Assembly (NCBI GenBank): GCA_905182125.1
Contig: CAJJAV010000018.1
Span: 1 to 46,572, forward strand
DNA from: an uncultured Candidatus Poseidoniales archaeon
Lineage (GTDB): Archaea > Thermoplasmatota > Poseidoniia > Poseidoniales > Poseidoniaceae
Reading direction: 5' to 3'
Length of the DNA stretch: 46,572 nucleotides
Made by a program: the position numbers and the translations under genes. Numbering within the stretch: the stretch's first letter is position 1; each line of letters begins with the position of its first letter. Of this stretch, positions 2,142-46,572 are shown piece by piece. The notes beneath the pieces were generated by a model, which was given only the letters and a program-made list of their open reading frames with translations, did not search any database and was not told where the DNA came from.

Positions 2142-3251
2142 TTAGCAATCATATGAGAATGCGATGGGCTTGCAGTGGGTCGCTGCTAACGCTACCGTCT
2201 GTATCGGCCCACTGAATACCCTTTGATCGGGGAAAAAAGCGTTGAAAGAGCAATTTGCAAGTTTCCGATAAAAGTTGAGGGTTAACCGACGGCTCAGGAC
2301 ATCCCCGTTTCGTCGGACTGCTTCCTTGAGAATGGCGTTATAGGCCATGCACATCAACCGAGGCGATCGTCGTGCATCCTTGTCCAGCAAGGGCATAAGT
2401 CCCAGAGCATTGTTCCGGTTGGCCACCACGTGGTCGATGTAGTGGCGCATGAAGTTTTGCCATGCTGGGCGTGTAGCGAGGGTAGGGTCGGTTAGATCAT
2501 CGTGTGTAAGTCCGAACTTTGCAAGCTCTTCTGTTGGCAAGTATATGCGATTGCGCTCGAGGTCTTCCTGGATATCTCTGAGCACGTTCACGAGTTGCAA
2601 AAACAATCCCATTTCGACGGCATGGCGCCGAGCGTTTGGGTCGGTGTAACCATAAATTTCGATTAAGCACAGGCCGACGGTGGATGCCACGCGGTAACAA
2701 TAACGTCGTAGGTCTTCAAAACGAGCGTAATTTGTTTCAAACAAGTCATCTTCCATGCCATTGATAAGTTCATGAAGATGAACAATTTCAATAGGATACC
2801 GTTGCAATGTATCTGCCAGAGCAATGAATACCGGGTCTGTCATTTTCACACCTGTTTCAATACCATCTAACTTTTCTCGGAATGAAAGTAAGGCTCGGAG
2901 ACGAATAAAGTGCTCTTCTTTCGAATATAATGTATTAAATGTTCTTTCCTCGAGTAAGTCTTGACAATGCTTTTCAGTTAACAAATCCAAATGGCTCAAA
3001 TCTTCATCAGGAAACCAATCACCATCAACAATGTCGTCAACTCGGCGACAAAAAGCATAGAGCGCATTGACTGATTTTCTTTTTGACTCCGGAAGGTATC
3101 TGAAAGATCGGAAAAACGAGGAAGATGCTCTCCTCGCTATGTGTTCACATTCAGTATAAGCAAGTTCAACGTGTTCACTAACACTCAAATCGGTTTCATC
3201 ACTAAGAAGGAAGATTGACGACACATGATTCACCCAATGATTACATTCCAC
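2142..3251 (-). CDS. crtB: phytoene/squalene synthase family protein
   Basis: It condenses two prenyl diphosphates head to head (phytoene from two GGPP, or squalene from two FPP), feeding carotenoid, retinal or other isoprenoid synthesis. Both Asp-rich Mg-diphosphate motifs are present: YAFCRRVDDIVDG and NVLRDIQEDLERNRIYLP. The RYCYRVASTVGL segment is also typical of the family. At 369 aa it is longer than the usual 280-310 aa because of about 25 extra N-terminal residues and a C-terminal tail. The frame opens with GTG at 3251; a TATA-like box at 3260-3269 suggests the real start may be GTG 3233 or GTG 3224. The half encoding the N-terminus (about 2770-3250) is clearly more AT-rich than the rest. 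Phytoene versus squalene cannot be settled by reading alone. Confidence 0.85.
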   Translation of the reverse strand: MECNHWVNHVSSIFLLSDETDLSVSEHVELAYTECEHIARRASSSFFRSFRYLPESKRKSVNALYAFCRRVDDIVDGDWFPDEDLSHLDLLTEKHCQDLLEERTFNTLYSKEEHFIRLRALLSFREKLDGIETGVKMTDPVFIALADTLQRYPIEIVHLHELINGMEDDLFETNYARFEDLRRYCYRVASTVGLCLIEIYGYTDPNARRHAVEMGLFLQLVNVLRDIQEDLERNRIYLPTEELAKFGLTHDDLTDPTLATRPAWQNFMRHYIDHVVANRNNALGLMPLLDKDARRSPRLMCMAYNAILKEAVRRNGDVLSRRLTLNFYRKLANCSFNAFFPDQRVFSGPIQTVALAATHCKPIAFSYDC

Positions 3252-18614: not shown

Positions 18615-20378
18615 ATGGTGGACGCTTGGGCCGATGTTGAAACGGCTATTGAGGCGGCCATCAAACAACGCCAACAACGCTTGGAGCGTTTGACGACTGC
18701 ATCAGCGCTTCTCCTCCTCAGCGGAGCGTTATGGCTCATGTGGCCAAGTTTGAACGCAGCGATGAACGGGGAATCCGGATTGCTGAAAGGACTCGGCTTA
18801 CCATTGCTGATTATTGTCTGGGGTTTGATCATTCAAGACCTCGTGGTCGATGACCCCCGAGCCAGAACGAGGGTAGGGTCCGCTGCAAGCGTTGCATGGC
18901 CTGTCCTTTTGGTCACGGCGAGTCAATCTCTTGAAGTGGGCCGGCCGAGCATGCTTGTTGGCAGTTTCGTGATCGCAGTGGTTGCATTGTGCTGTTTCAA
19001 CGCTTCAAAGTCAATTCTCCAAGGTGGCCTAGATGTTCTGCGATGGCGAGCGGTGATGACCGGTTTAGGAGCGGTTGTTGCTGTGTCTCTTTTTGCAGGC
19101 AACACACCCGAATCAATGACCTATGAATGGTTGGCCTCAGTTGCCGCCTTAGTGGTCAGCTTTGGCCTCACTGGTTACATTTGGGTCGTCGGCGATGACC
19201 AACGTGCAGAGCGGAAGAAGTTCAGTCGTCGTCTTGATGAAATCGAGGGGCGCCTGTTGGAACTCAAAGCCGGTGGCGCTGCAGTGGACCAGGCTTCAAG
19301 CTTGATCATGACCGCCCGAGAAGAAGGTCATGTTGATCCACATCACGGAATGAATTTGTTGAATGATGCAGAAGATGACATCGAACGATCGTTGTCCCTC
19401 TCGGGTGATGTCGAGGCCATTCGAGCAGATGCACGAGCGAGCATGGATGAGGCTGAATCCATCGCACCAACAGCCAAGCGACCACGGAAGTCGTTCGATA
19501 TGGGCGAGCGGGAAGTCAAACTTGGCTCCCTTCGTGAAGGTGAAATGCTGTTCCGGCAATCGAAAAAATACGCCAATGAAATCATTGAATGGTGGGGTGT
19601 TGCTGAGAAAGCAATTGCCGAAGCTGCGCGTCAATTGCAAGGGAAAAGCGGCGACGGTATCAATCACCTTAGAGAAATGCTTGCTGATGCGAGAAAGAAG
19701 TTGGCTTCTGAGGCACCGAAGAAAGCCTACGAGTTCGCTGTTGTCATCCCTGTACAACTCGCTGCAGATGATGATGCTCTCGGAAAAGCGGCAATGTCCC
19801 TCAAAGAAGCAGAGCGGCAATTGAAGCAAACCGACGGACTGGACATTACCGTGATGACCGAGCGTCTCGCTCAAGCAGAAGCAGCCCTCGATGATGGAAA
19901 CTCAGGTCAAGCCATTGGCTTGGCAGACGGCGTGGTCCGTTCGATTCAAAACGAACGGGAAGCAATGGACGACGTTCAACGGGCCTTGCGTCAACGCAAG
20001 AAATTGAGTGCACAGTACGAATTAAGGGACGACAGCGAACACTGGGATGGGCGCATGCAAGCCATCGAACAAGCGGCTGATGAACGACGCTGGAGTGAGG
20101 CATCCGAACTTCTCGCAACCATCAATCAAGACCTCGATAAAGAAGGCAAAGCGAGCGAAGAAGCCCTCGAACTGTATGACTTTGTCATGGATGAATGGCG
20201 CACTCTGCGCAACCAGTGTGAAGCTGGAGCAATCAAAGTTGATGATGATGACCGCCGGGCTACAGAGCAGGCGATTGCTCTGGCAGAAGAAGGACTGAGC
20301 GTGGGAAGAATCGAAGATTGCTTGGACCAACTTGGTGTCGCAGATGCTGCAATGGAACGTCTACGAAGAAGAATTTAA
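18615..20378 (+). CDS. membrane-anchored coiled-coil protein of unknown function
   Basis: A 587-aa protein. An N-terminal helix (residues 1-25) is followed by about six membrane segments up to residue 195 (for example ALLLLSGALWLMWPSL and WPVLLVTASQSL). The remaining 390 residues are cytoplasmic, Ala/Glu/Arg-rich helices with repeated patterns such as AEAALDDGNSGQAIGLADG, partly coiled coil and partly TPR-like. No enzyme motif is visible. It converges with the 850-aa membrane protein (6 nt between stops). A scaffold or sensor role is conceivable but unsupported. Confidence 0.7.
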   Translation: MVDAWADVETAIEAAIKQRQQRLERLTTASALLLLSGALWLMWPSLNAAMNGESGLLKGLGLPLLIIVWGLIIQDLVVDDPRARTRVGSAASVAWPVLLVTASQSLEVGRPSMLVGSFVIAVVALCCFNASKSILQGGLDVLRWRAVMTGLGAVVAVSLFAGNTPESMTYEWLASVAALVVSFGLTGYIWVVGDDQRAERKKFSRRLDEIEGRLLELKAGGAAVDQASSLIMTAREEGHVDPHHGMNLLNDAEDDIERSLSLSGDVEAIRADARASMDEAESIAPTAKRPRKSFDMGEREVKLGSLREGEMLFRQSKKYANEIIEWWGVAEKAIAEAARQLQGKSGDGINHLREMLADARKKLASEAPKKAYEFAVVIPVQLAADDDALGKAAMSLKEAERQLKQTDGLDITVMTERLAQAEAALDDGNSGQAIGLADGVVRSIQNEREAMDDVQRALRQRKKLSAQYELRDDSEHWDGRMQAIEQAADERRWSEASELLATINQDLDKEGKASEEALELYDFVMDEWRTLRNQCEAGAIKVDDDDRRATEQAIALAEEGLSVGRIEDCLDQLGVADAAMERLRRRI

Positions 20379-20384
20379 GTTCAA

Positions 20385-22937
20385 TCAAAGGTCAAGCAAA
20401 CCCTTGTTCTTAATCGCTTTCAGATCCAAGCCCCCAGGGAATCCAAGGTCCACAGGCATGCCAGAAATCGTCACAATCAGACCACTGAGGTGAAGGTAAA
20501 GGCAGGGCGGCAGATTGGTTTGGTCAATCTTCGACAACATTTTCCAACCATTGTTCCCTTTCTTTGAAGCGATGGTAAGTTCATTTGAGCGACCATGTGC
20601 AATCCATGCATTGGCAGACCACGCATGCTGTTTTTGGGATTTGCGAGGGAAACTCGGAGCAGGCAAGACAACGTGCATCTTGCCCCACTCTTCATCCAAA
20701 TTGGTACCGGATTCTGTCGCCCACTCAATATTGGTCACCTCGCTGGAACGATGCTGTGTGAGCCCTAAGCGAGCAAAATAGCCGAGTAAAGCGCGCAGGT
20801 GAGGGTGACGTCGGTGTTCTTTTCCAAGGACTTCTGCCAGGCCTACAGCAGTATTGACTCGGTCAGCGTCGAGGTGCAGCAAGCAGCGAACGACCTCACC
20901 ATGAATCCAAGATTCAATGCTGTGTTTCTTGATGAACCGTTCAAGCAAGTTGAGCGCTGCTTCACTTTCTCTTGCCAGACGCATTCGGGCGATATCTCCG
21001 AGTAAAAATAAGCGCCCTGCTGGCGTGTCCATGTACTTGAGTTCAGACCGGCTGGTGTTGGTTTCAAACCGTCGAACAAGATCTATGTTCCGTCGCATGA
21101 TGCTGTCCATTGAGAGAAGTGGTTTGTGGCGTACATCAAGCACACGACTCTTTGGAGCGAAGAGCGAAGCAACCCATTGAAGCCGCGCCGCCTCGATGTT
21201 ATCGTCTGGGAGAATTTTCAATCTCGGTTTCGATTCTGATAAATCCCTCTGAGCGAGGCTGGCCGCAGAAAGTGAAAGGCGAGCATAACCTGCCGACTTT
21301 GCGCCACCTAGAGCAAGCAACGATACTGCTTCTTCTTCTGCTTCGTTCCATCGACCCAAACCCGCGTACATGGTCATCACTGCGTTTGTTTTACGGGCCA
21401 AACCCAACCCGTCGATAGCGTCACCGTGTCCTTTGAGAATATCATCAAACTGGCTCATTGCATCGACCCATTCGTCCTTTGCGATGGCGGTGGTAAGAGG
21501 TTGTTTCTTGAGGTAGATGACATCTTCCATCTCAGAGAACCGTTGGCGTCGATCACCGAGTGCTGCATCGAATGTAATGTCATCAAGGCGGGACCCTACA
21601 CGCAGGGATTTGACCCAAATTGTAAGGAAGGCAACCTGACCACCAGAGGCTAACATCCAGGTTAATTCTTCCAATGCGTCTTTTGTTAAGAACGAGCAGA
21701 CGGTTGAATCCCATGAACCGCATTGTGAGCCTTGTGGTAGGAAGCTGGAATCCCAAAACGTGATCATTCCGAGGGCTAAAAGAAGCATGGATTGCCCAGC
21801 AAACCCGGTGAAACAAAAGTTCAGTACTTTTGCCTGTTGGGACCTTTCTGCCCGCAACAAGCGGCTATCTGCTAATTTGATACCACCTGCGCCAGAGACG
21901 TCTTGAACATCGAGGAACAAGATGCGAGCCACTTCATAGACAAACAGGAAACCAATGATGGCCACGTTTAGCAAAAGGAACAACAGAACCATGGTGACAA
22001 TGGGCACGCGAATGCCATCGATCGGAATGAAGGAAAACAGTTCAATGAGTCCGAAGCCGAGCAAGCCTCCTTCCTCCATGAAGGTGGTTTGTGGTCGGTA
22101 TTCAGGGAGCGCAAGCACCTGGTCTGAATGCGTGAGGAGGTTTGGGTCGAGCAACAACACAACGAGCGACACGAGCGTGTTAAATGCAACAAAAGGCATC
22201 ACAATGAGGTTGAAGTTAACAATTTGGGCGACAGCCTGTTGACGAGCATTTGGGGTGTGATTGTGGAACGGTGATGCTTCACCACCAGCTATTTTCTTAG
22301 AGGATTGGCGCAGTGAACGCCAGGAAGAACCTAAGATTCGCCCATAGGCCAACACCGAGGGGGAAAACATGGTGAACGCTGCGATGCTGAATCGACGGTC
22401 ATCTGGGACCTCGTTCACGCCAAGGGCCACATACAGAGCGCCCACCAGACCAATCCAAATGGTCAGTAGAATACCGTAAGTGTAATTTTGCCACTTGCTG
22501 GATTTTTGAAGCGAGGCACGGTCTTGCCCAATGGGTTTGATGACCTGCGCACCGAGTGAGGAACCGCTTGAAATGAGGGCTGGTAAAGCGATGAACATCA
22601 AGGCAATGGCCACCGATGGAGCATGGTAACCCGGAGAAAGATCAAACCGGGCCATGAGGAATTCAAAGAACAAAATCAGCACGCCAACAAGAGCAAACAG
22701 GTACGTCGTAACACCAAACCTCATTCCGGGCGAATTGAGCAATATTTTCGCTTCCCCGGCGTTGCGGGTGACCTGGTGAACTTCATAGCGCAGTTCACCG
22801 GTTTGGAAAGCCACTTGCAAACCACTCAATTGGCGTGGGACCACTTGTGTCCAAAAGAACCAAGCTGTGATGGCAGCGAGGAAGATTGGCACAATTGCAG
22901 CGGGGGTAACCCCCTCAACAATTGGTGGTGTTTGCAT
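20385..22937 (-). CDS. large polytopic membrane protein with helical-repeat C-terminus
   Basis: An 850-aa protein. About ten membrane segments lie in residues 1-460 (for example IVPIFLAAITAWFFW and FGVTTYLFALVGVLILFF), with a cytoplasmic stretch SSWRSLRQSSKKIAGG between groups. Residues about 480-850 are soluble with TPR-like helices (WNEAEEEAVSLLALGGAKSAGYARL). The start is ATG 22937 behind GGAGGCC, 14 nt after thrS, so it is probably translated from the thrS transcript. I recognise no family. The arrangement of a membrane domain plus helical repeats recalls the convergent neighbour at 18615-20378, and the two may act together, which is an inference. Confidence 0.7.
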   Translation of the reverse strand: MQTPPIVEGVTPAAIVPIFLAAITAWFFWTQVVPRQLSGLQVAFQTGELRYEVHQVTRNAGEAKILLNSPGMRFGVTTYLFALVGVLILFFEFLMARFDLSPGYHAPSVAIALMFIALPALISSGSSLGAQVIKPIGQDRASLQKSSKWQNYTYGILLTIWIGLVGALYVALGVNEVPDDRRFSIAAFTMFSPSVLAYGRILGSSWRSLRQSSKKIAGGEASPFHNHTPNARQQAVAQIVNFNLIVMPFVAFNTLVSLVVLLLDPNLLTHSDQVLALPEYRPQTTFMEEGGLLGFGLIELFSFIPIDGIRVPIVTMVLLFLLLNVAIIGFLFVYEVARILFLDVQDVSGAGGIKLADSRLLRAERSQQAKVLNFCFTGFAGQSMLLLALGMITFWDSSFLPQGSQCGSWDSTVCSFLTKDALEELTWMLASGGQVAFLTIWVKSLRVGSRLDDITFDAALGDRRQRFSEMEDVIYLKKQPLTTAIAKDEWVDAMSQFDDILKGHGDAIDGLGLARKTNAVMTMYAGLGRWNEAEEEAVSLLALGGAKSAGYARLSLSAASLAQRDLSESKPRLKILPDDNIEAARLQWVASLFAPKSRVLDVRHKPLLSMDSIMRRNIDLVRRFETNTSRSELKYMDTPAGRLFLLGDIARMRLARESEAALNLLERFIKKHSIESWIHGEVVRCLLHLDADRVNTAVGLAEVLGKEHRRHPHLRALLGYFARLGLTQHRSSEVTNIEWATESGTNLDEEWGKMHVVLPAPSFPRKSQKQHAWSANAWIAHGRSNELTIASKKGNNGWKMLSKIDQTNLPPCLYLHLSGLIVTISGMPVDLGFPGGLDLKAIKNKGLLDL

Positions 22938-38902: not shown

Positions 38903-39658
38903 TCAGGCGTTGCTGCGCGTCGTCTTGCAGCCAACGCCCCAATCGCCCTCAATCATTGCCTCTCGTGTTGCTTGGAGCAGGGCATCTTCTGCCGTCACTG
39001 TGCCGCGTAAGCCAGGCGTTAAAGCGAGGGCGATGAAAGCACCATCTTGAATCCATTTTTCCAATTGTATTTTTGAATCCTCAATTGAAATATTAACTAA
39101 ACCTACTCCAATTGGAATTTCAATAACTCTCGGATTGAGATGCATACCTAAACCGAGGGATTTTTGCACTGCTTCTTTGCCAACCCATGCTTCGATAGCC
39201 AGTTCAGGATGAGTGTCCAGGTGATTCAATTCTTCACCCTTCGCCATCATATCGAAAGCGTTTTTTTGAATTCCCCGTTCCTTCGATTCGGCATCGACGC
39301 CGATCTGCCATCCATGTTCCACCAGAGCCACATAGGCCCATCCGTCGCTGTGTCCAAGACTGATTGAAGGCAAAGCTGTGTTTTTCCAAACACCAGGGAT
39401 GTAGGTGAGGTACGGTGCTCGGTGTTCTGTTCGTTCAACTGAAATCATTGAAGCATCAAAACCCCATTGACGAAGAGCTTGTTCGAGCAAGAGGCGCCCT
39501 GAAAGGTGCTCATCAGTTCGCTTCTGAATGGCAAAGGTCGCCACTTCATCGGCATGAGCGAGGGTGACATCCTGCACATCATGTGTGCGTACTCGGCAGC
39601 GGAGCACCAAACGTCGTGGTTCATCCGCACCCGGTGGGTGGAGAACTTGAACCGTCAT
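38903..39658 (-). CDS. 4'-phosphopantetheinyl transferase (Sfp type)
   Basis: It transfers phosphopantetheine from CoA to carrier domains. In about 251 aa the signature runs ISLGHSDGWAYVAL, then the Mg-binding GVDAESKERG, and, about 40 residues on, the W-x-x-K-E-A motif in EAWVGKEAVQKSLGLG. ATG 39658 follows a strong Shine-Dalgarno (39664-39670) and lies 13 nt after the stop of the large synthase, so the two are translated from one mRNA and the synthase carrier domains are the obvious substrates. The stretch about 39050-39180 inside the gene is strikingly AT-rich compared with both ends. Confidence 0.88.
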   Translation of the reverse strand: MTVQVLHPPGADEPRRLVLRCRVRTHDVQDVTLAHADEVATFAIQKRTDEHLSGRLLLEQALRQWGFDASMISVERTEHRAPYLTYIPGVWKNTALPSISLGHSDGWAYVALVEHGWQIGVDAESKERGIQKNAFDMMAKGEELNHLDTHPELAIEAWVGKEAVQKSLGLGMHLNPRVIEIPIGVGLVNISIEDSKIQLEKWIQDGAFIALALTPGLRGTVTAEDALLQATREAMIEGDWGVGCKTTRSNA

Positions 39659-39663
39659 TTCCG

Positions 39664-39670
39664 CCCCTCC
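39664..39670 (-). promoter_or_regulatory. Shine-Dalgarno of the phosphopantetheinyl transferase gene
   Basis: GGAGGGG on the minus strand ends 5 nt before ATG 39658 and begins just after the synthase stop codon (39672-39674). It decides the start of the transferase. Confidence 0.7.
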
Positions 39671-39671
39671 A

Positions 39672-42600
39672 TCATCGATCAAGCGTGAAAGCATCTTCAT
39701 CCGATACGGGAGCCATTCCCTTGAGTCGCAACCCTTTGAGGGCCAAAACCGGAGCGTTATCATCACCGACGATGACCACATCGTGAACGGTCACGCCAGC
39801 CTCTTCAACAGCGGTTCTGATGCTCCTCATTCGGAGCTGTTCATCTTGTTCTGGAACCCGGAGCATGGACGACCATTCGATGCCAACGGGTAAGGAGGAG
39901 AAACCTTCGCTCTCCATGGCGACCAAGCCAGCGTTTTGGAACCCTGCTTCGATCAGCATTGGAAGCGCTTCGAGCAAGACAATTTCACCATCTGCTTCGT
40001 GAGCAAACTGATCGGATGCAGGCAACTGATGACGCATCAAAGCAACACCATCGGCACCGGGTGCTGAAGCATCGCCGACACCACGGAGCACGCCTCCGTG
40101 TGATTGGAAGCGAGGACCGTGGAAGTACCGTCGATAGATGAATGAAGGCAATTCAACAACTTCCCCGGGTGCAGGAACACCAACATCAGGTAAGGCCTCA
40201 ACCTCTGCTTGGAGGAACGGACGAAGATCATCGCACTTTCCAACCAACCGAACCGAGGCTTTGTGATGTTCACGTTCGCCAAAGATTTCCCCTTTCGAAT
40301 TGGTCAGATCAGAGACGAGTCGGCATGTGACCCACGTCAGATCGTTTTCTGTCCGATCGAATTCCGCATGGATACGAACGGTCATAGCGCCTTTAAGCAA
40401 CTTCACAGGAAGACCAAACTCAACCGATTCAAACCCGGCCAAGCAGGTGGATGGACGGAGCAGGAGGGCTGTTTCAGCAAACATTTCCAATGCCATCACA
40501 CCAGGGTGATACGGCACGCCTTCGATGGCGTGATCGCCCAAGAATGGATGGTCGGCAACCGACAGCGTGGATTGAGTCACGAGTGATCGCTCTTCTTCGA
40601 AGGAGAGAACCTTGTCAACAAACGGGAACCGTGCTGGGTCAGCGATGATCGCTGCCATTTCACCCGGAAGTCGCAGAGGCGCTTCTCTGAACGCGTCAAA
40701 GAAGTCCATTGAACCGAGGGAACCGCAACCGATCACTCGGCGCTTTCCACCAGCAAGAGCCTCATCGACAAAGATGGTGACACCTTCCTCAACAGACAGC
40801 GTGTCGATGCCTGCTGCAGCGAAGACGGCTTCAATCGAGCCACGGGTCGCCATGCCAACATCGCGCCATCCAGTCCAGCCAATGGCAACAGCACGGCAGA
40901 TGCCTGCTGCAGTCAAGCGAGCCATTTCAGCATCAAGAACACTGTTCGCAGCAGCGTAGTCTGTTTGTCCAGCGTTACCGAACCGTCCTGCTACGCTTGT
41001 GAAACAAGCAGCGAATCGGGGTGTTTCCGCACCGGATGCTACACATGCAGCAAGCATGCACTGCCAGCCATCGACCTTGACACGAACGACTTTGTCGAAC
41101 ACCCCAGGATCTTTGTCGGCAACGAGTTTCGAATCTTCAAGCCCAGCGCCATGCACCAAACCAGTGATTGGACGTTCCATCGCCGCACCAACCGCTTCCA
41201 TTCCCTCTCGGTCCAGGACGTCAACGGGGTGGTAAGAAGCCGTATTACCGGTGCTATGAATCGAATTTAACGTCACATAAACATCCCTGCTACGGGTGAA
41301 CTTCTGCCATGCAGCGTTCCATTCAACCATGGTGACCTTGCCAGATGTACTTGCGGAAGTGAGGCGGTCTCGTAACGACATCCTTTCTCGTTCAAGTTCC
41401 TCTTCATCCCACGTCACCCAGGATTCAGTCTGCTCAATCAGTCGGGACCGTCCGAGCAAGGAAAAGTGCGCTCCAGCCTTAGGGGAGGCTTCTGCAACAC
41501 CAATAATCGAAGCCGCAGTGACACCAGAGCCACCGCCAGAAACAAGCCATGTATCATCACTAAGCAACGGCTTTCGTTCTTCAACAAGGTCCTCGGCAAA
41601 GGCTACAAGGGCCCAGCGCCGTGAATCTCGATCAAGTCCAACTTCAATTTCGCCTGCCAGATTAAACACATCATTGTAAATCATCTCGGCAGCTTCAACC
41701 GGATCTAAAATCAATTCAGGATGAACGTCAAGGGCTCGGCATCGCAGATGTGGCTGTTCGAGTGCATAGGATTTGGTCACACCAGATGCAGCACACTGAA
41801 CGGCATTGAAACGTTCACCGATGTTGCCATGGCGTCCGTCCAAAGCGGTGACTGATGCAACAACGCCGGTCTCGAGGGAAGCAAAGTGAGCATCAAGCCC
41901 TTGAAGCAGGGCGAAGTATCCATGTGCAGCCAAAGCGATCTGCGAGGAAGGCAGGCCATCTTCAGACCATGAAGCGCTCGCCAACTTGAGGGGAGCCATG
42001 TGGAGCAAAGCCGTGACGTTGTGACCACTCAATGCTTGGCATACCGCAGCAATGTGTTCAGGATTGGCTGGATCTGCACGGTACACTGTGCGCTTTCCTT
42101 CCTGTTGCATCGACATATCCCGAATGTTGCTTTCGAATCCGATGCGGATGGCTTCCATGCCCTCTGCTTCGACGCGCTCACAGAATGATTCTGCAATCCC
42201 CCAACCATCGTCGGTGACAACGGCAGTACCGCTCAGTGCGAGTGGAGCCCCTAGGCCTGGTGCAGCTTCGACTTCAATTTGCCAACGGCGTGATTCAACA
42301 GGTGAACCTGTCGAGTGGACAACGCCAGGTTCCACTTCTGTGGACTCTTGAGTCGAAACGGGTGTTGATGCCACGCCGCCCTTCATTCGAACGATGTAGG
42401 CGGTGAAGTGATTCAGTGTTGGGTGGTCCGAGAGAACAAAATCCTCATCCAATGGAAGATCAAAGATTTCTCGTACATCGCCCATGATTTCGGCTTGCTT
42501 GACGGTATCAATGCCCAGTTCCCCTTCGAGGTCTTGGTCCATCTCGATGAAGTCAGCCGGATAACCCGTATGCTTGACAACAATCTCGACTAATTTGCCG

Positions 42601-45600
42601 TCGACTTCGTCATCAGACTGAGCAATCGTGGCCGCCACAGGCGAAGGCACAGCCGGTGCTGCTGGAGGTGTCGCCGTTGGAGTTGGTGCTTGGCGTTTGA
42701 GGCCGAAACTGGTGATGCCACACCCCCCTGCATGCGTTGAATGTAGGCAATCATATGATTCAAGGTCGGGTAGTCTGAGAGAACGAAATCTTCATCCAAA
42801 GGCAAACCAAACCGATCGCGAATGTCAGCCATGATTTCTGCTTGCTTCACCGTATCAATGCCCAGTTCACCCTCGAGGTCTTGGTCCAGTTCGATGAAAT
42901 CTGCCGGATAACCGGTGTGCGTGACCACAACTTCAACCACGGTGGTTCGAAGGTGCTCATCATCAACGACCACTGCGGCAGGTGAGGCAACAACTGGAGC
43001 AGTTTGCGCAGCCGCTGGTGGCGGAGTTGGCGTTACTACTGTTGGTGCTGTAACCGCTGGAGCAGGGACTGCTACAGAGACATCTCCCCCGCTCATGCGT
43101 TGGATGTAGCCGATCATGTGGTTCAGCGTTGGATAGTCCGAAAGTACGAATTCTTCATCCACTGGTAAGTTGAAACGATCCCGAATATCAGCCATAATTT
43201 CAGCTTGCTTGACGGTATCAATGCCAAGTTCACCTTCAAGGTCTTGATCCAATTCCACGAAATCTGCTGGATAGCCGGTGTGGTTCACAACCACATCGAT
43301 GACGGTTGTGACAATGTCTGCATCATCGGAAACTGACGCTGCAACAGGTGCAGCCTTCGGCGTAGGTGCAGGAGGTTGAATCTGAGGCTGAGCCACGGGT
43401 TGAGGGGTTGGCACTGCCATCGGTGTTGGGGCAATGGATGGTTTACCCTCGAACGGTGCAGTGATTGGCCATGGTTCACCTTGAACCCCTCCGTGGAGGT
43501 TTTCTTCACCGTTGACATACGCCACCAACTTCTGATCGAGTAAACGCATCACGACATCATCAGTACCTGCCAATTTACGGTTCCATGCTAGGAACTTGCC
43601 GCCATCGATTCGTTCACCTTGGACCGGCCAACGACGAACGAGTGAGAGCGCCATTTGAGAACCAAATCCGGCTGCAAATCGTAAACCGTACTTCAGGTTT
43701 GGATAGTCGCCACCCGTTGAGAGGTTGAGGTCACCCAACTCAGGGTCGGTTTCTTTGTGATTGGCAATCGGGGGTATACGCCCAGTTTTCATGCCGTGGA
43801 ACATGCTGGCATCTTCGATGCCAACTGCCATTGGATGGCCTGTGAAGCCCTTCGTGTTAGCAATGACAAGTTTGTCTGTGCTGTGGGTGAAGGTGTCGCG
43901 AAGAGCACGAACTTCAGATTGGGCGGAACCGCCACGAGCGGGTGTGTAGGTTTCATGGGAAAAGAACACTGTATTCGGGGCGATTTCGTGTCGGTCGAGG
44001 CCCCATTGGCGCTCCATTGAAGAGACGAAATTATCGACTGTTTCAGCGACGTGATCGACATCGAGCCGCGTTCCATGGAAAGCGGAATTGGCTGTTGTTG
44101 CTCCAAGAAGTTCTGCAATTGGTTGCACGCCACGTTCCTGTGCTTCGGAATTCCTTTCGATGACAAACGCAGCAGCGCCCATTCCGAGAATCAGGCCATT
44201 GCGGCGGCGGTCGAACGGTAGGGCTGTTTCTTCAACAACGTTGTTGGTAGCAGCAGCTCCAGAGGCTGCGAAGCCTCCACCGATCCATTCCCACATGTCA
44301 TCACCGGTGACATCGTCAGCCGAGATGATGACCACACGGTCAACACGGTCGCAATTCAGCCAGTCTTCGGCAACGCCAAATGCAGCAGTAGCAGAAGCGC
44401 AAGCAAGATTGATGATTGTGTTTGGACCACGTATTCCCGAGTACTGAGCAAATTGTGAATGGCCCATAGCCAACGTTTGGAACAGGTAGCGACGGTCAAA
44501 CCGTCCCTCGCCATCATCGCCGTTGGTTTTAGCATGCTTCAACGCCATTTGGAACCCTGGGAAACACGAAGCGAAGACGATGCCTGTGCGGTCTCGCGTA
44601 TGTTGAGGAACTTGCCAGTTTCGAATCAGACGAAGACCACCTTTTCCGATTTGTTCAACCGGGGTCAATGGAATCGCTGCGTCACGCAGAGCAAGAAGTC
44701 CTGCTGCCATACCGAGTTGAGTCGTGATGTCCCATGCCAAGATCACTTTTGGATCGATACCGAATTCTTCTGCAAGATCAAAGGCACCCTTGACACCAGC
44801 AAGTTGTGGCACATCGCCAAACTCTGTGGCTTGGTCCATGTTCACTGAACCGTCCCGTCCTTTGATGAGTCGAACCAAGTTCTTGTCAAGCAAGCGTTGC
44901 TTGTAGTCGTCGGTCACTTCTGAAATACAGGTTTCTCCTCGAACGAGCCGCTCGAATGTGTCTTCATCGAACACACGCTCTCCACCAGGTAATCCCAGTG
45001 AAACACCCGTGATAACAAATGGATCGGCTCGTCGAAGGCTCATTGGGTCATGGCCCTGTGCGGAGGTGCTGATTGGATTGGTATGTTGTGCAACGCGGGA
45101 CATCGATGTCTTTGGCGTCCAAGAGGTCGGTGGCGACGTCACCCATCGGGCCACATCTGCAATCGTTTCTGCACCACTGACGTCAACTTCTGGATCGGTG
45201 ACCGTTTCAGCAGCGAGCGTTTGGAACAACGCAGCAATGTTGTCTTCACTCATGCCAAGGCCGAGTCGAAGGTTGACCATGCCGTGACAGAATCGAGCGG
45301 GGTAGTTCGTGAGGGCAGCAATGCGGTCACCAAGGTAAGCATCCTTAGCCTTTTGAGCGGCTACTTCGGGATCTTGAGGTGGTGACGGTGCTTGGTGAAT
45401 CACCTGCACGCTTGCGGCTGGTGCAGCGCTAGCCGAGGATGGCAAGGGCCGGGAGCGGGTCTTCAAATCAGCCGAAGGGGCTGTTTTTTGGTGTGCTTCG
45501 ATCGGCCCAGCACGGAATGCTTCGGTCAACATTGGCGAAGTGGGTTCTGGCCAATTCACGGGGCGGCCCGCAAGTGCCATGGTGGCAAGTGCCGTGAGGA

Positions 45601-46572
45601 ACGTGGCGATTCCGCCTTGCTTTGGATGGTTTGTCATCACTGGCAAGTGCGGCTGGCCTTCGAGGATTTGAACCGCAAACATGCTCAATGCTCGCTTCGG
45701 ACCAACCTCGATGAAAGCACGAGCTCCCGCTTCATACATCGTTTGAATCTGAGAAGTCCATTCGACTGACGACGCCATTTGCAACGCCAATTTACTGAGG
45801 ATTGCAGCCTTTGAGGCCTCTAAATCTTCGGAATCAGAGGGGTTCATTGGATAGAACTCTCCATCGACGTTGGCAGTGATGGGGATGGTCGGCCATCGGA
45901 TTTCCAGCCCTTCAAGGAAGCGTCGAAGAGGTTCATTTGCAGGTGCAACAATTCGAGAGTGGAACGCGTGAGAGGTTGCCAGCAGCATGCATTGGAACCC
46001 TTGTTCTTCAAAGGCAGCCATAGCGGCTTTCACTGGTGCGGTTTCACCGGCAATAACGGTCATCTTTGGTGAATTCTTATTGGCAGCAATGACGTAGCCA
46101 TCGATGGAATTGATGATCGTTTCGACTTCAGAATACGGTGCACCGACGCTTGCCATGAGTCCTTTGTCTTCGATTTCAACAGCACCCATTTCTGTGCCTC
46201 GGGCGGCGGCAGCCCTCAGTGCACCATCCATGTCAAGGATACCAGCGGACATCAAGGCAGCGTATTCGCCGAGCGAATGCCCAGCAACCATGTCGGGTTT
46301 GAGACCATGATCATTGAGCGCACGCTCAATAGCGAGATCGGCGGTGAGCATGGCGGGTTGAGTGTATTCGGTTTGTTTCAGTTTGTGCTCTGCCTCGGCT
46401 TGTTCTGCTTTGGAAAGGTTCGACCGAAGGACAAAGCTAGAGAGGGTTTCACCATCGAGAACTTCTGTCATCGTCTCATCAGCTTGAGCCCACACTTGCT
46501 GAACTGCAGCATAACGCTGGTAGAGATCATGCGTCATACCGACGTATTGACTGCCTTGACCGGGGTACATGT
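39672..46572 (-). CDS. type I fatty-acid/polyketide synthase-like megaenzyme, 5' end outside the window, one frameshift
   Basis: About 2,300 residues are visible. The order is an acyltransferase (PGQGSQYVGM; GHSLGEYAAL; malonyl-type HAFHS), a ketosynthase (about 45030-43600; Cys in NLACASATAAFG, His in FSHETYTPARGG and NTKGFTGHPMAV) and three tandem carrier domains. A ketoreductase follows (LVSGGGSGVTAASI; GRFGNAGQTDYAAANS), then a hot-dog dehydratase (HPFLGDHAIEG; YHPGVMALEMFAE; FHGPRFQS). No thioesterase or enoylreductase is seen. The layout and the ketoreductase resemble PfaA-type polyunsaturated fatty acid synthases. The Met at 46570 lies inside the acyltransferase motif, so the protein starts beyond the edge. 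The frame changes near 42692, in the Pro/Ala linker between carriers 2 and 3; one added base gives NAQAPTPTATPPAAPAVP. The product is unknown. Confidence 0.88.
42375..43325 (-). repeat. three tandem acyl carrier domains in the synthase
   Basis: Carrier 1 lies at about 43085-43325, carrier 2 at 42715-42955 and carrier 3 at 42375-42610, each about 80 residues and joined by Pro/Ala/Thr/Val linkers. They are near-identical (DLEGELGIDTVKQAEIM in all). The phosphopantetheine attachment position, Ser in the DSL/DSI motif of known carriers, is Thr in all three: codons at 43214-43216, 42851-42853 and 42504-42506. Tandem near-identical carriers are typical of PUFA synthases, where they raise output. 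Confidence 0.85.

What the first reader, a model, noticed from the sequence alone, without database searches (positions are those of the whole stretch)
38903..46572. Archaeal PUFA-synthase-like megaenzyme with its own phosphopantetheinyl transferase
The sequence shows AT-KS-ACP-ACP-ACP-KR-DH in one gene, followed 13 nt later by an Sfp-type transferase with a strong ribosome-binding site. Archaeal membranes are built from isoprenoid ethers, and type I fatty acid or polyketide synthases are rare in archaea. The catalytic Cys-His-His of the ketosynthase, the Ser of the acyltransferase and the Ser/Tyr region of the ketoreductase are intact, so the enzyme should work. The malonyl-type acyltransferase plus ketoreductase and dehydratase would give an unsaturated or hydroxylated acyl chain. 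This could be an undescribed archaeal lipid or metabolite pathway. The organism and product are inferences.
Basis: partly seen in the sequence, partly recalled or inferred. Interest (0 to 1): 0.82.

Follow-up and report, generated by a model that had tools for sequence, protein, structure and literature searches.

The report
Fatty-acid synthase of ocean-surface archaea
The window ends inside a giant fatty-acid-making enzyme of Marine Group II archaea, encoded beside a helper gene that switches it on; its relatives form a complete three-gene operon in many of these archaea, whose lipids are unknown, and its carrier domains have threonine where serine is the rule.

Summary
The window stops at a contig end inside the gene and carries one frame break. 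Relatives show the whole: a ~2,940-aa KS1-AT-(ACP-like)-KS2-ACPx3-KR-DH protein, preceded by a FabI-like enoyl reductase gene (64 of 69 loci) and followed by a phosphopantetheinyl transferase (58 of 59). It is archaeal, not chimeric: 98 of 389 sampled Thermoplasmatota genomes match its second ketosynthase. Selection is strongly purifying (dN/dS ~0.05). With KR, DH and ER all present, the likely product is a saturated acyl chain, not the unsaturated or hydroxylated one proposed. It falls below the PfaA cut-off and resembles the bacterial 'Type R' secondary lipid synthase, plus a DH and a FabI-type ER. In nine Marine Group II genomes searched, its ACPs are the only carrier domains found, and in eight the neighbouring transferase is the only one found (the ninth has a divergent candidate). 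Yet the attachment residue is Thr, not Ser: 233 of 240 distinct ACPs. Either Thr is phosphopantetheinylated, or this strongly conserved system does not work as read. Product and role in the membrane remain inferred.

The parts
42590..46570 (-). 5' part of the megasynthase reading frame (1326 aa), truncated at the contig end: AT - ACP-like - KS2 - ACP1 - ACP2; KS1 lies beyond the contig end
   Evidence: full gene in L004:9593-18418
45566..46567 (-). Acyltransferase domain (PF00698), GHSLGEY and SHAFHS motifs
   Evidence: E 2.2e-37; motifs
45131..45337 (-). ACP-like stretch, probably a degenerate ACP (Glu where the attachment residue would align, a Ser one place before; alignment by eye)
   Evidence: resemblance read by eye, no Pfam match; modelled with fair to high confidence (residues 1-70)
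43619..45043 (-). KS2: second ketosynthase, catalytic Cys/His/Lys/His kept
   Evidence: FabF fold (model mean pLDDT only 64); residues in its 99%-identical relative L004
43103..43303 (-). ACP1 (PF00550) with LGIDTVKQ: Thr at the attachment site
42740..42943 (-). ACP2 (PF00550), Thr at the attachment site
42590..42650 (-). Frame break in the ACP2-ACP3 linker, absent from the relative L004
39672..42650 (-). 3' part of the megasynthase reading frame (ACP3 - KR - DH)
42393..42596 (-). ACP3 (PF00550), Thr at the attachment site
40731..41558 (-). Ketoreductase domain (PF08659), Ser/Tyr motif kept; outer bounds approximate
   Evidence: motifs
39675..40637 (-). Dehydratase domain, double hotdog, HxxxGxxxxP
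   Evidence: model mean pLDDT 86 matches PKS dehydratases of CurJ, CurF and MAS-like PKS
38903..39658 (-). Sfp-like 4'-phosphopantetheinyl transferase (start ATG 39658, 13 nt after the PKS stop, GGAGG 7 nt upstream of the ATG)
   Evidence: the only PF01648 match found in this genome

Best explanation
This is the truncated end of the de novo fatty-acid synthase operon of a Ca. Poseidoniaceae (Marine Group II) archaeon: FabI-type enoyl reductase, then KS1-AT-KS2-ACP3-KR-DH megasynthase, then phosphopantetheinyl transferase. Inferred mechanism: the PPTase loads phosphopantetheine on the tandem ACPs, at Thr; AT loads malonyl from malonyl-CoA; KS1 and/or KS2 condense iteratively; KR, DH and the separate FabI-like ER reduce fully, giving a saturated acyl-ACP. 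This is passed, without a thioesterase, perhaps to the PlsC-like acyltransferases of the genome. Shown here: gene order, domain content, conserved catalytic residues, purifying selection, and co-conservation of the three genes. Inferred: all chemistry, chain length, acceptor, modification on Thr.
For: Full architecture and ER in L004. ER upstream in 64 of 69 loci and PPTase downstream in 58 of 59 (84 loci examined, the rest too short on that side or without the needed matches). FabI Tyr-x6-Lys in 66 of 66 ER homologues. KS Cys/His/Lys/His in all 49 family KS rows aligned. dN/dS 0.049 and 0.045 for the two parts of the synthase, 0.106 for the PPTase. In this genome the gene holds the only full ketosynthase match (two others are partial, 27 bits), the only PF00550 matches and is beside the only PF01648 match. 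In 8 further MGII genomes all 21 PF00550 matches lie in this gene, and the single PF01648 match of 7 of them lies just downstream of it. The genome also has two PF01039 carboxyltransferases and three PF01553 acyltransferases, a family not found in the four archaeal control genomes.
Against: No thioesterase or reductase release domain was found by Pfam in the full protein. The synthase was not found in 16 of 24 f2 genomes, seven of them over 90% complete, so it is not essential to the whole order. Ser-to-Thr at the carrier site would normally suggest inactive ACPs. The PF00550 genome search is not fully sensitive: it missed ACP3 here and some known ACPs of G112 and G043, so a diverged carrier elsewhere could be missed too. 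Outside MGII an ER was seen in only 2 of 10 loci, and L141 gave no DH match by BLAST and no KR Tyr motif. Carboxyltransferase substrate is unassigned. No product or expression data. The MAG lacks KS1 and ER because the contig ends.
Confidence: 0.62

Rival explanations
1. A secondary-lipid or polyketide synthase: the same enzyme makes a special, partly reduced or polyunsaturated product (signal, pigment, protective lipid) and is not a general fatty-acid synthase.
For: Patchy presence in f2 (8 of 24). Architecture like the Type R secondary lipid synthases (PMC3098273 section 7). Best NCBIfam model for the full protein is PfaA, though below cut-off. In 8 of 10 non-MGII loci no ER was seen nearby (several of these loci are short).
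Against: In MGII a FabI-type ER is beside it in 64 of 69 loci. It holds the only full KS and the only ACPs found in the genome. No tailoring genes were recognised among the L004 neighbours scanned.
Confidence: 0.27
2. The ACPs are not modified on Thr: the synthase is a conserved but non-canonical machine, or a different residue carries the arm. (Not exclusive of the other readings.)
For: Ser is the rule for carrier domains (general knowledge). All eight bacterial reference loci with ACP matches other than Nonomuraea carry Ser (the SgcE and Natrinema loci gave no match), as do six of seven plasmid ACP hits.
Against: The adjacent PPTase is kept although no other carrier was recognised in the genome. 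18 of 233 Thr-ACPs have no Ser anywhere in the 70-aa domain. Two f2 genera carry Ser at the same site, and one protein has Ser then three Thr, as if the two were interchangeable.
Confidence: 0.2
3. Chimeric assembly or bacterial contamination.
For: Bacterial-type enzyme; one frame break at a linker; the window ends inside the gene.
Against: Same gene in dozens of MGII genomes including a 1-contig genome (G073); L004 flanks include a TBP-like gene; dN/dS ~0.05.
Confidence: 0.01

Closest known systems
Type R secondary lipid synthase (Shulse & Allen 2011, PMC3098273, section 7 read; Koribacter, Solibacter, Elusimicrobium, Roseiflexus)
   Same: One protein KS-MAT-'CLF'-ACP(3-6)-KR followed by a PPTase gene
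   Different: Here archaeal; has a DH; a FabI-type ER gene precedes it; the 'CLF' position is a KS with catalytic residues kept; ACPs carry Thr. Type R sequences could not be reached, so kinship and their ACP residue are untested. The words archaea, euryarchaeo- and threonine do not occur in that paper's main text.
Nonomuraea gerenzanensis KS-AT-KS-ACP-KR-DH protein (L110:10252-17919)
   Same: Same architecture, KS1 49% and KS2 49% identical, Thr in its ACP; its KS2 groups with Poseidoniales inside the archaeal clade (94/90, just short of the tool's star)
   Different: One ACP; next to a fused acetyl-CoA carboxylase (1821 aa) and an acyl-CoA dehydrogenase; no PPTase among the nine ORFs scanned there
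PfaA of bacterial PUFA synthases (TIGR02813)
   Same: KS-AT-tandem ACP-KR order; best NCBIfam match
   Different: Below cut-off (838 vs 1010 bits); extra KS2; no PfaC-like KS-CLF found in this 82%-complete genome; adjacent ER is FabI-like
Enediyne PKSE (SgcE, L161)
   Same: Type I; a PPTase domain is fused in some Thermoplasmatota relatives, as recalled for PKSE
   Different: Its KS falls in a bacterial group apart from the Poseidoniales KS1; here two KS and several ACPs

Membership tests
PfaA (TIGR02813) | Score above the curated cut-off of 1010.1 bits | tested here: not met
   838 bits for the full-length L004 protein
PfaA/PUFA synthase system | Partner PfaC (KS-CLF-DH-DH) | tested here: not met
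   PF00109 in this genome: KS2 of this gene plus two partial matches of 27 bits; genome 82% complete
PfaA/PUFA synthase system | PfaD-type enoyl reductase | tested here: inconclusive
   The adjacent ER is FabI-like; PfaD was not searched genome-wide
Type R secondary lipid synthase | KS-MAT-CLF-ACP(3-6)-KR in one protein | tested here: inconclusive
   Order met in L004 and others, but the second KS keeps Cys/His/Lys/His, so it does not look like an inactive CLF; ACP number 2-6; extra DH
Type R secondary lipid synthase | Downstream PPTase gene | tested here: met
   58 of 59 loci
Type R secondary lipid synthase | KS clusters with Type R KS in a tree | not testable with these tools
   No Type R sequence could be fetched; the genome search takes only its own genome handles as centre
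Type I iterative fatty-acid synthase (functional class) | KS, AT, ACP, KR, DH and ER all present with catalytic residues | tested here: met
   ER as a separate gene; second catalytic residue of DH not tested; ACPs have Thr for Ser
Type I iterative fatty-acid synthase (functional class) | Makes fatty acids | not testable with these tools
   No product data
PP-binding carrier domain (PF00550) | Ser as phosphopantetheine attachment residue (general knowledge) | tested here: not met
   Thr in all three window ACPs and 233 of 240 distinct family ACPs; domain score above cut-off
Sfp-type PPTase | PF01648 above cut-off and G(V/I)DxE ... W-x2-KE-x3-K motifs (motifs recalled) | tested here: met
   Window: 29 bits vs 25, GVDAE and WVGKEAVQK; the N-terminal model PF17837 is below its cut-off. 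My pattern missed the first motif in a number of the relatives

The most novel reading that the evidence does not exclude
Thermoplasmatota archaea, including the abundant Marine Group II, make fatty acids de novo with one type I synthase whose carrier domains are phosphopantetheinylated on threonine, by a co-evolved PPTase that has no other substrate in the cell; the acyl chains help build the so far unidentified MGII lipids.
Probability: 0.35. Interest if true: 0.9.

Novelty: new variant of a known kind. Interest (0 to 1): 0.74.

Why it matters
Which lipids MGII archaea make is an open question: known archaeal lipids could not be assigned to them in MGII-dominated waters (PMC6962369, passages) and none of 270 MAGs encodes the archaeal glycerol-phosphate backbone enzyme (PMC6461757, passages). 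Here the vague 'putative fatty-acid pathway' becomes one conserved, compact operon that can be expressed and assayed. If its ACPs are modified on Thr, a rule of carrier-protein chemistry, Ser as the attachment residue, has a natural exception. A 2008 screen reported no type I PKS in archaeal proteins (PMC2568958, passages).

Tried and rejected
Chimera or contamination: rejected. PfaA membership: rejected by cut-off. KS2 as a chain-length factor: rejected by residues (the same alignment did show a second Persicobacter domain without Cys/His). Two separate genes at the frame break: unlikely, because complete relatives are one ORF. The structure model of the ACP-like + KS2 stretch is weak (mean pLDDT 64), used only for the fold. 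KS1 placement against bacterial KS is not resolved (bacterial reference KS group with Poseidoniales KS1 inside the archaeal KS1 set, with several open forks). The KS tree took 24 archaeal loci chosen for diversity, Nonomuraea, Azospirillum and 11 other reference loci; L148 was not given (same genus as L149), and six long reference rows are flagged by the tool as unsure. Literature: all 10 searches used. Searches found no paper; (GIDTVKQ and three Thr-phosphopantetheine phrases) covers only exact phrases in the held papers. One search (Poseidoniales + polyketide) listed three papers; the passages with those words do not concern this gene. Villanueva 2017 is not held; its content is known to me only through PMC6962369, PMC6461757 and PMC7852524. 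Papers: PMC3098273 section 7 read plus passages; passages only from PMC6461757, PMC6962369, PMC7852524, PMC9723583, PMC11237513, PMC6336850, PMC6864105, PMC2568958, PMC9582728, PMC6741140, PMC9287336, PMC10160649, PMC12965618, PMC9502895.
Full report
What is there. On the minus strand of 38903-46570 lie two overlapping open frames and a PPTase gene. Pfam finds AT, KS and two PP-binding domains in the first, PP-binding, KR and PKS_DH_N in the second, and ACPS (PF01648) in the third. The window is G000:C18:1-46572 of an 82%-complete, 31-contig genome. The open frame runs to its last bases; DNA of the ER and its upstream genes from L004 finds no match elsewhere in this genome, and no second full KS is found, as expected if the contig ends here.

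The full gene. A scan of named genomes (close relatives; best 80 of 92 kept) returned 76 loci; 75 bear titles of Poseidoniaceae, Poseidonia, Poseidoniales, euryarchaeal or Thermoplasmatota records and one (L056) a bin named Rhodobiaceae. In the closest, L004 (97% identical), the gene is one frame of 2941 aa, L004:9593-18418, with KS1, AT, KS2, three ACPs, KR and DH. Nine bases before it ends a 264-aa protein matching FabI-type enoyl reductases (PF13561 1.6e-70; NCBIfam FabI models are best but below cut-off). The frame break of the window lies between ACP2 and ACP3 in a Pro/Thr-rich linker; L004 is continuous there. Of the loci held then, 48 had an open frame of 2600 aa or more; many others are cut by contig ends.

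Operon conservation. Of 84 MGII-type loci examined, 69 had KS1 and KS2 matches and enough upstream DNA: the ER was there in 64. Four of the five misses (L036, L041, L048, L074) are contigs that begin inside the gene, and in L058 the distance was just over my limit. Of 59 with enough downstream DNA, 58 had the PPTase; the exception, L151, has a 218-aa ORF there with PPTase-like motifs, read by eye. All 66 ER homologues keep Tyr-x6-Lys. In other Thermoplasmatota families the synthase carries a PPTase domain at its C-terminus in the four proteins scanned (PF01648 in L135, L136; L137, L142), and an ER lies next to it in L137 and L139, 2 of 10 such loci.

Is it functional? All 49 KS rows of the family that were aligned (Thermoplasmatota and Nonomuraea, KS1 and KS2) keep Cys/His/Lys/His; a second Persicobacter KS-like domain in the same alignment does not. 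AT, KR and DH motifs are kept in the MGII rows as far as those rows reach (the four f2 rows end before DH). In one search a simple pattern for the DH motif missed L137, L142, L145 and L146 and the two truncated loci, and the KR Tyr pattern missed L141; L142 does have a PKS_DH_N match. Window against L004 gives dN/dS 0.049 (AT-ACP2), 0.045 (ACP3-DH) and 0.106 (PPTase). The DH model (mean pLDDT 86) matches PKS dehydratases; the KS2 model, weaker, matches FabF.

Distribution. KS2 searched in 389 Thermoplasmatota genomes drawn evenly: 98 match at 1e-20, i.e. 67 of the window's family f1 (five f1 misses are listed), 15 of f2 and 16 of six other families (the list of misses is capped). Among 59 close relatives 38 match the AT-KS-ACP query: 30 of 35 in f1 (the five misses are 57-83% complete) and 8 of 24 in f2, seven of the f2 misses being over 90% complete.

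Thr at the carrier site. With patterns that allow any residue: 149 of 149 ACP motifs in 48 long MGII proteins read Thr; over all loci at that stage, repeats included, 305 Thr and 4 Ser, two of the Ser from an Azospirillum outgroup; at DNA level, any codon allowed and repeats included, 458 ACN and 21 TCN, nothing else. Distinct ACP domains: 233 Thr, 7 Ser (here the pattern allowed only S or T; domains with ambiguous letters, stops or cut ends were dropped, and Azospirillum left out). Per locus, 94 loci: 85 all-Thr, 4 all-Ser (L148-L151, f2 genera g9 and g2), 1 mixed (L142), 4 with no motif. Nonomuraea also has Thr; the eight other bacterial reference loci with ACP matches and six further plasmid hits have Ser. 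In this genome the only PF00550 matches are these ACPs and the only PF01648 match is this PPTase. In eight more MGII genomes all 21 PF00550 matches lie in this gene; the one PF01648 match, found in seven, lies on the same contig just past its 3' end. Six of the eight are Thr-type, two (G035, G050) Ser-type. A PPTase kept under selection with only Thr-bearing carriers in sight implies that Thr is the acceptor. This is inference: no chemistry was seen, and the search is not fully sensitive (it found 2 of 3 ACPs here and missed some in G112 and G043). That serine is otherwise the rule is general knowledge.

Lipid context. The genome has GGGP synthase, no G1P dehydrogenase match (PF13685 rings in 13 of 14 controls), three PF01553 acyltransferases (frames of 269, 541 and 545 aa) and two PF01039 carboxyltransferases. 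This agrees with the literature: no G1PDH in 270 MAGs (PMC6461757, passages); [quoted passage not shown] Those passages do not describe this synthase. The terms polyketide and ketoacyl had no hits in PMC9723583, PMC11237513, PMC6336850, PMC6864105 and PMC6741140.

Closest known. Type R secondary lipid synthases share KS-MAT-CLF-ACP-KR plus PPTase (PMC3098273 section 7). The only close bacterial sequence reachable was Nonomuraea, whose KS2 groups with the Poseidoniales ones inside the archaeal set, 94/90, just short of a starred branch. The direction of transfer cannot be told, since Type R sequences are missing from the tree.

Verdict. A real, conserved archaeal type I fatty-acid-synthase-like operon, new as a variant of a known kind, with an odd and testable carrier residue. 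The product, the release step and any role in the membrane are inferred.

Noticed in passing
window:42590-42650: Frame break in the ACP2-ACP3 linker of the window's copy, absent in the 97%-identical relative; the linker is Pro/Thr-rich and repeat-like.
   Followed up: partly
window:1-4000: G+C is 0.42-0.48 against about 0.49-0.55 elsewhere; the stretch holds a squalene/phytoene synthase (2142-3251) and a TSP_3-repeat protein (355-2082).
   Followed up: no
window:12162-15335; 18615-20378; 20385-22937: Large ORFs of 1057, 587 and 850 aa without a Pfam match.
   Followed up: no
window:45131-45337: ACP-like stretch between AT and KS2, more divergent across MGII than the other domains (found by BLAST in only some f2 loci); possibly a structural relic of an ACP.
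   Followed up: partly
L148-L151: Two f2 genera have Ser instead of Thr in all ACPs; their PPTases give the weakest matches to the window-type PPTase (45-54 bits or none, against 74-172 in the other MGII loci).
   Followed up: partly
L056: A bin named as a Rhodobiaceae bacterium holds an MGII-type contig with this gene, probably misbinned.
   Followed up: no
L014 and L059: One MAG (UBA258) holds two different copies of the locus (76% and 85% to the window), suggesting a mixed bin or two copies.
   Followed up: no
L166: A Natrinema (haloarchaeal) plasmid carries a type II-like set: KS, ACP, holo-ACP synthase, FabG.
   Followed up: no
L110:10252-23386: The Nonomuraea homologue sits beside an 1821-aa fused acetyl-CoA carboxylase, a plausible malonyl-CoA supplier.
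   Followed up: partly
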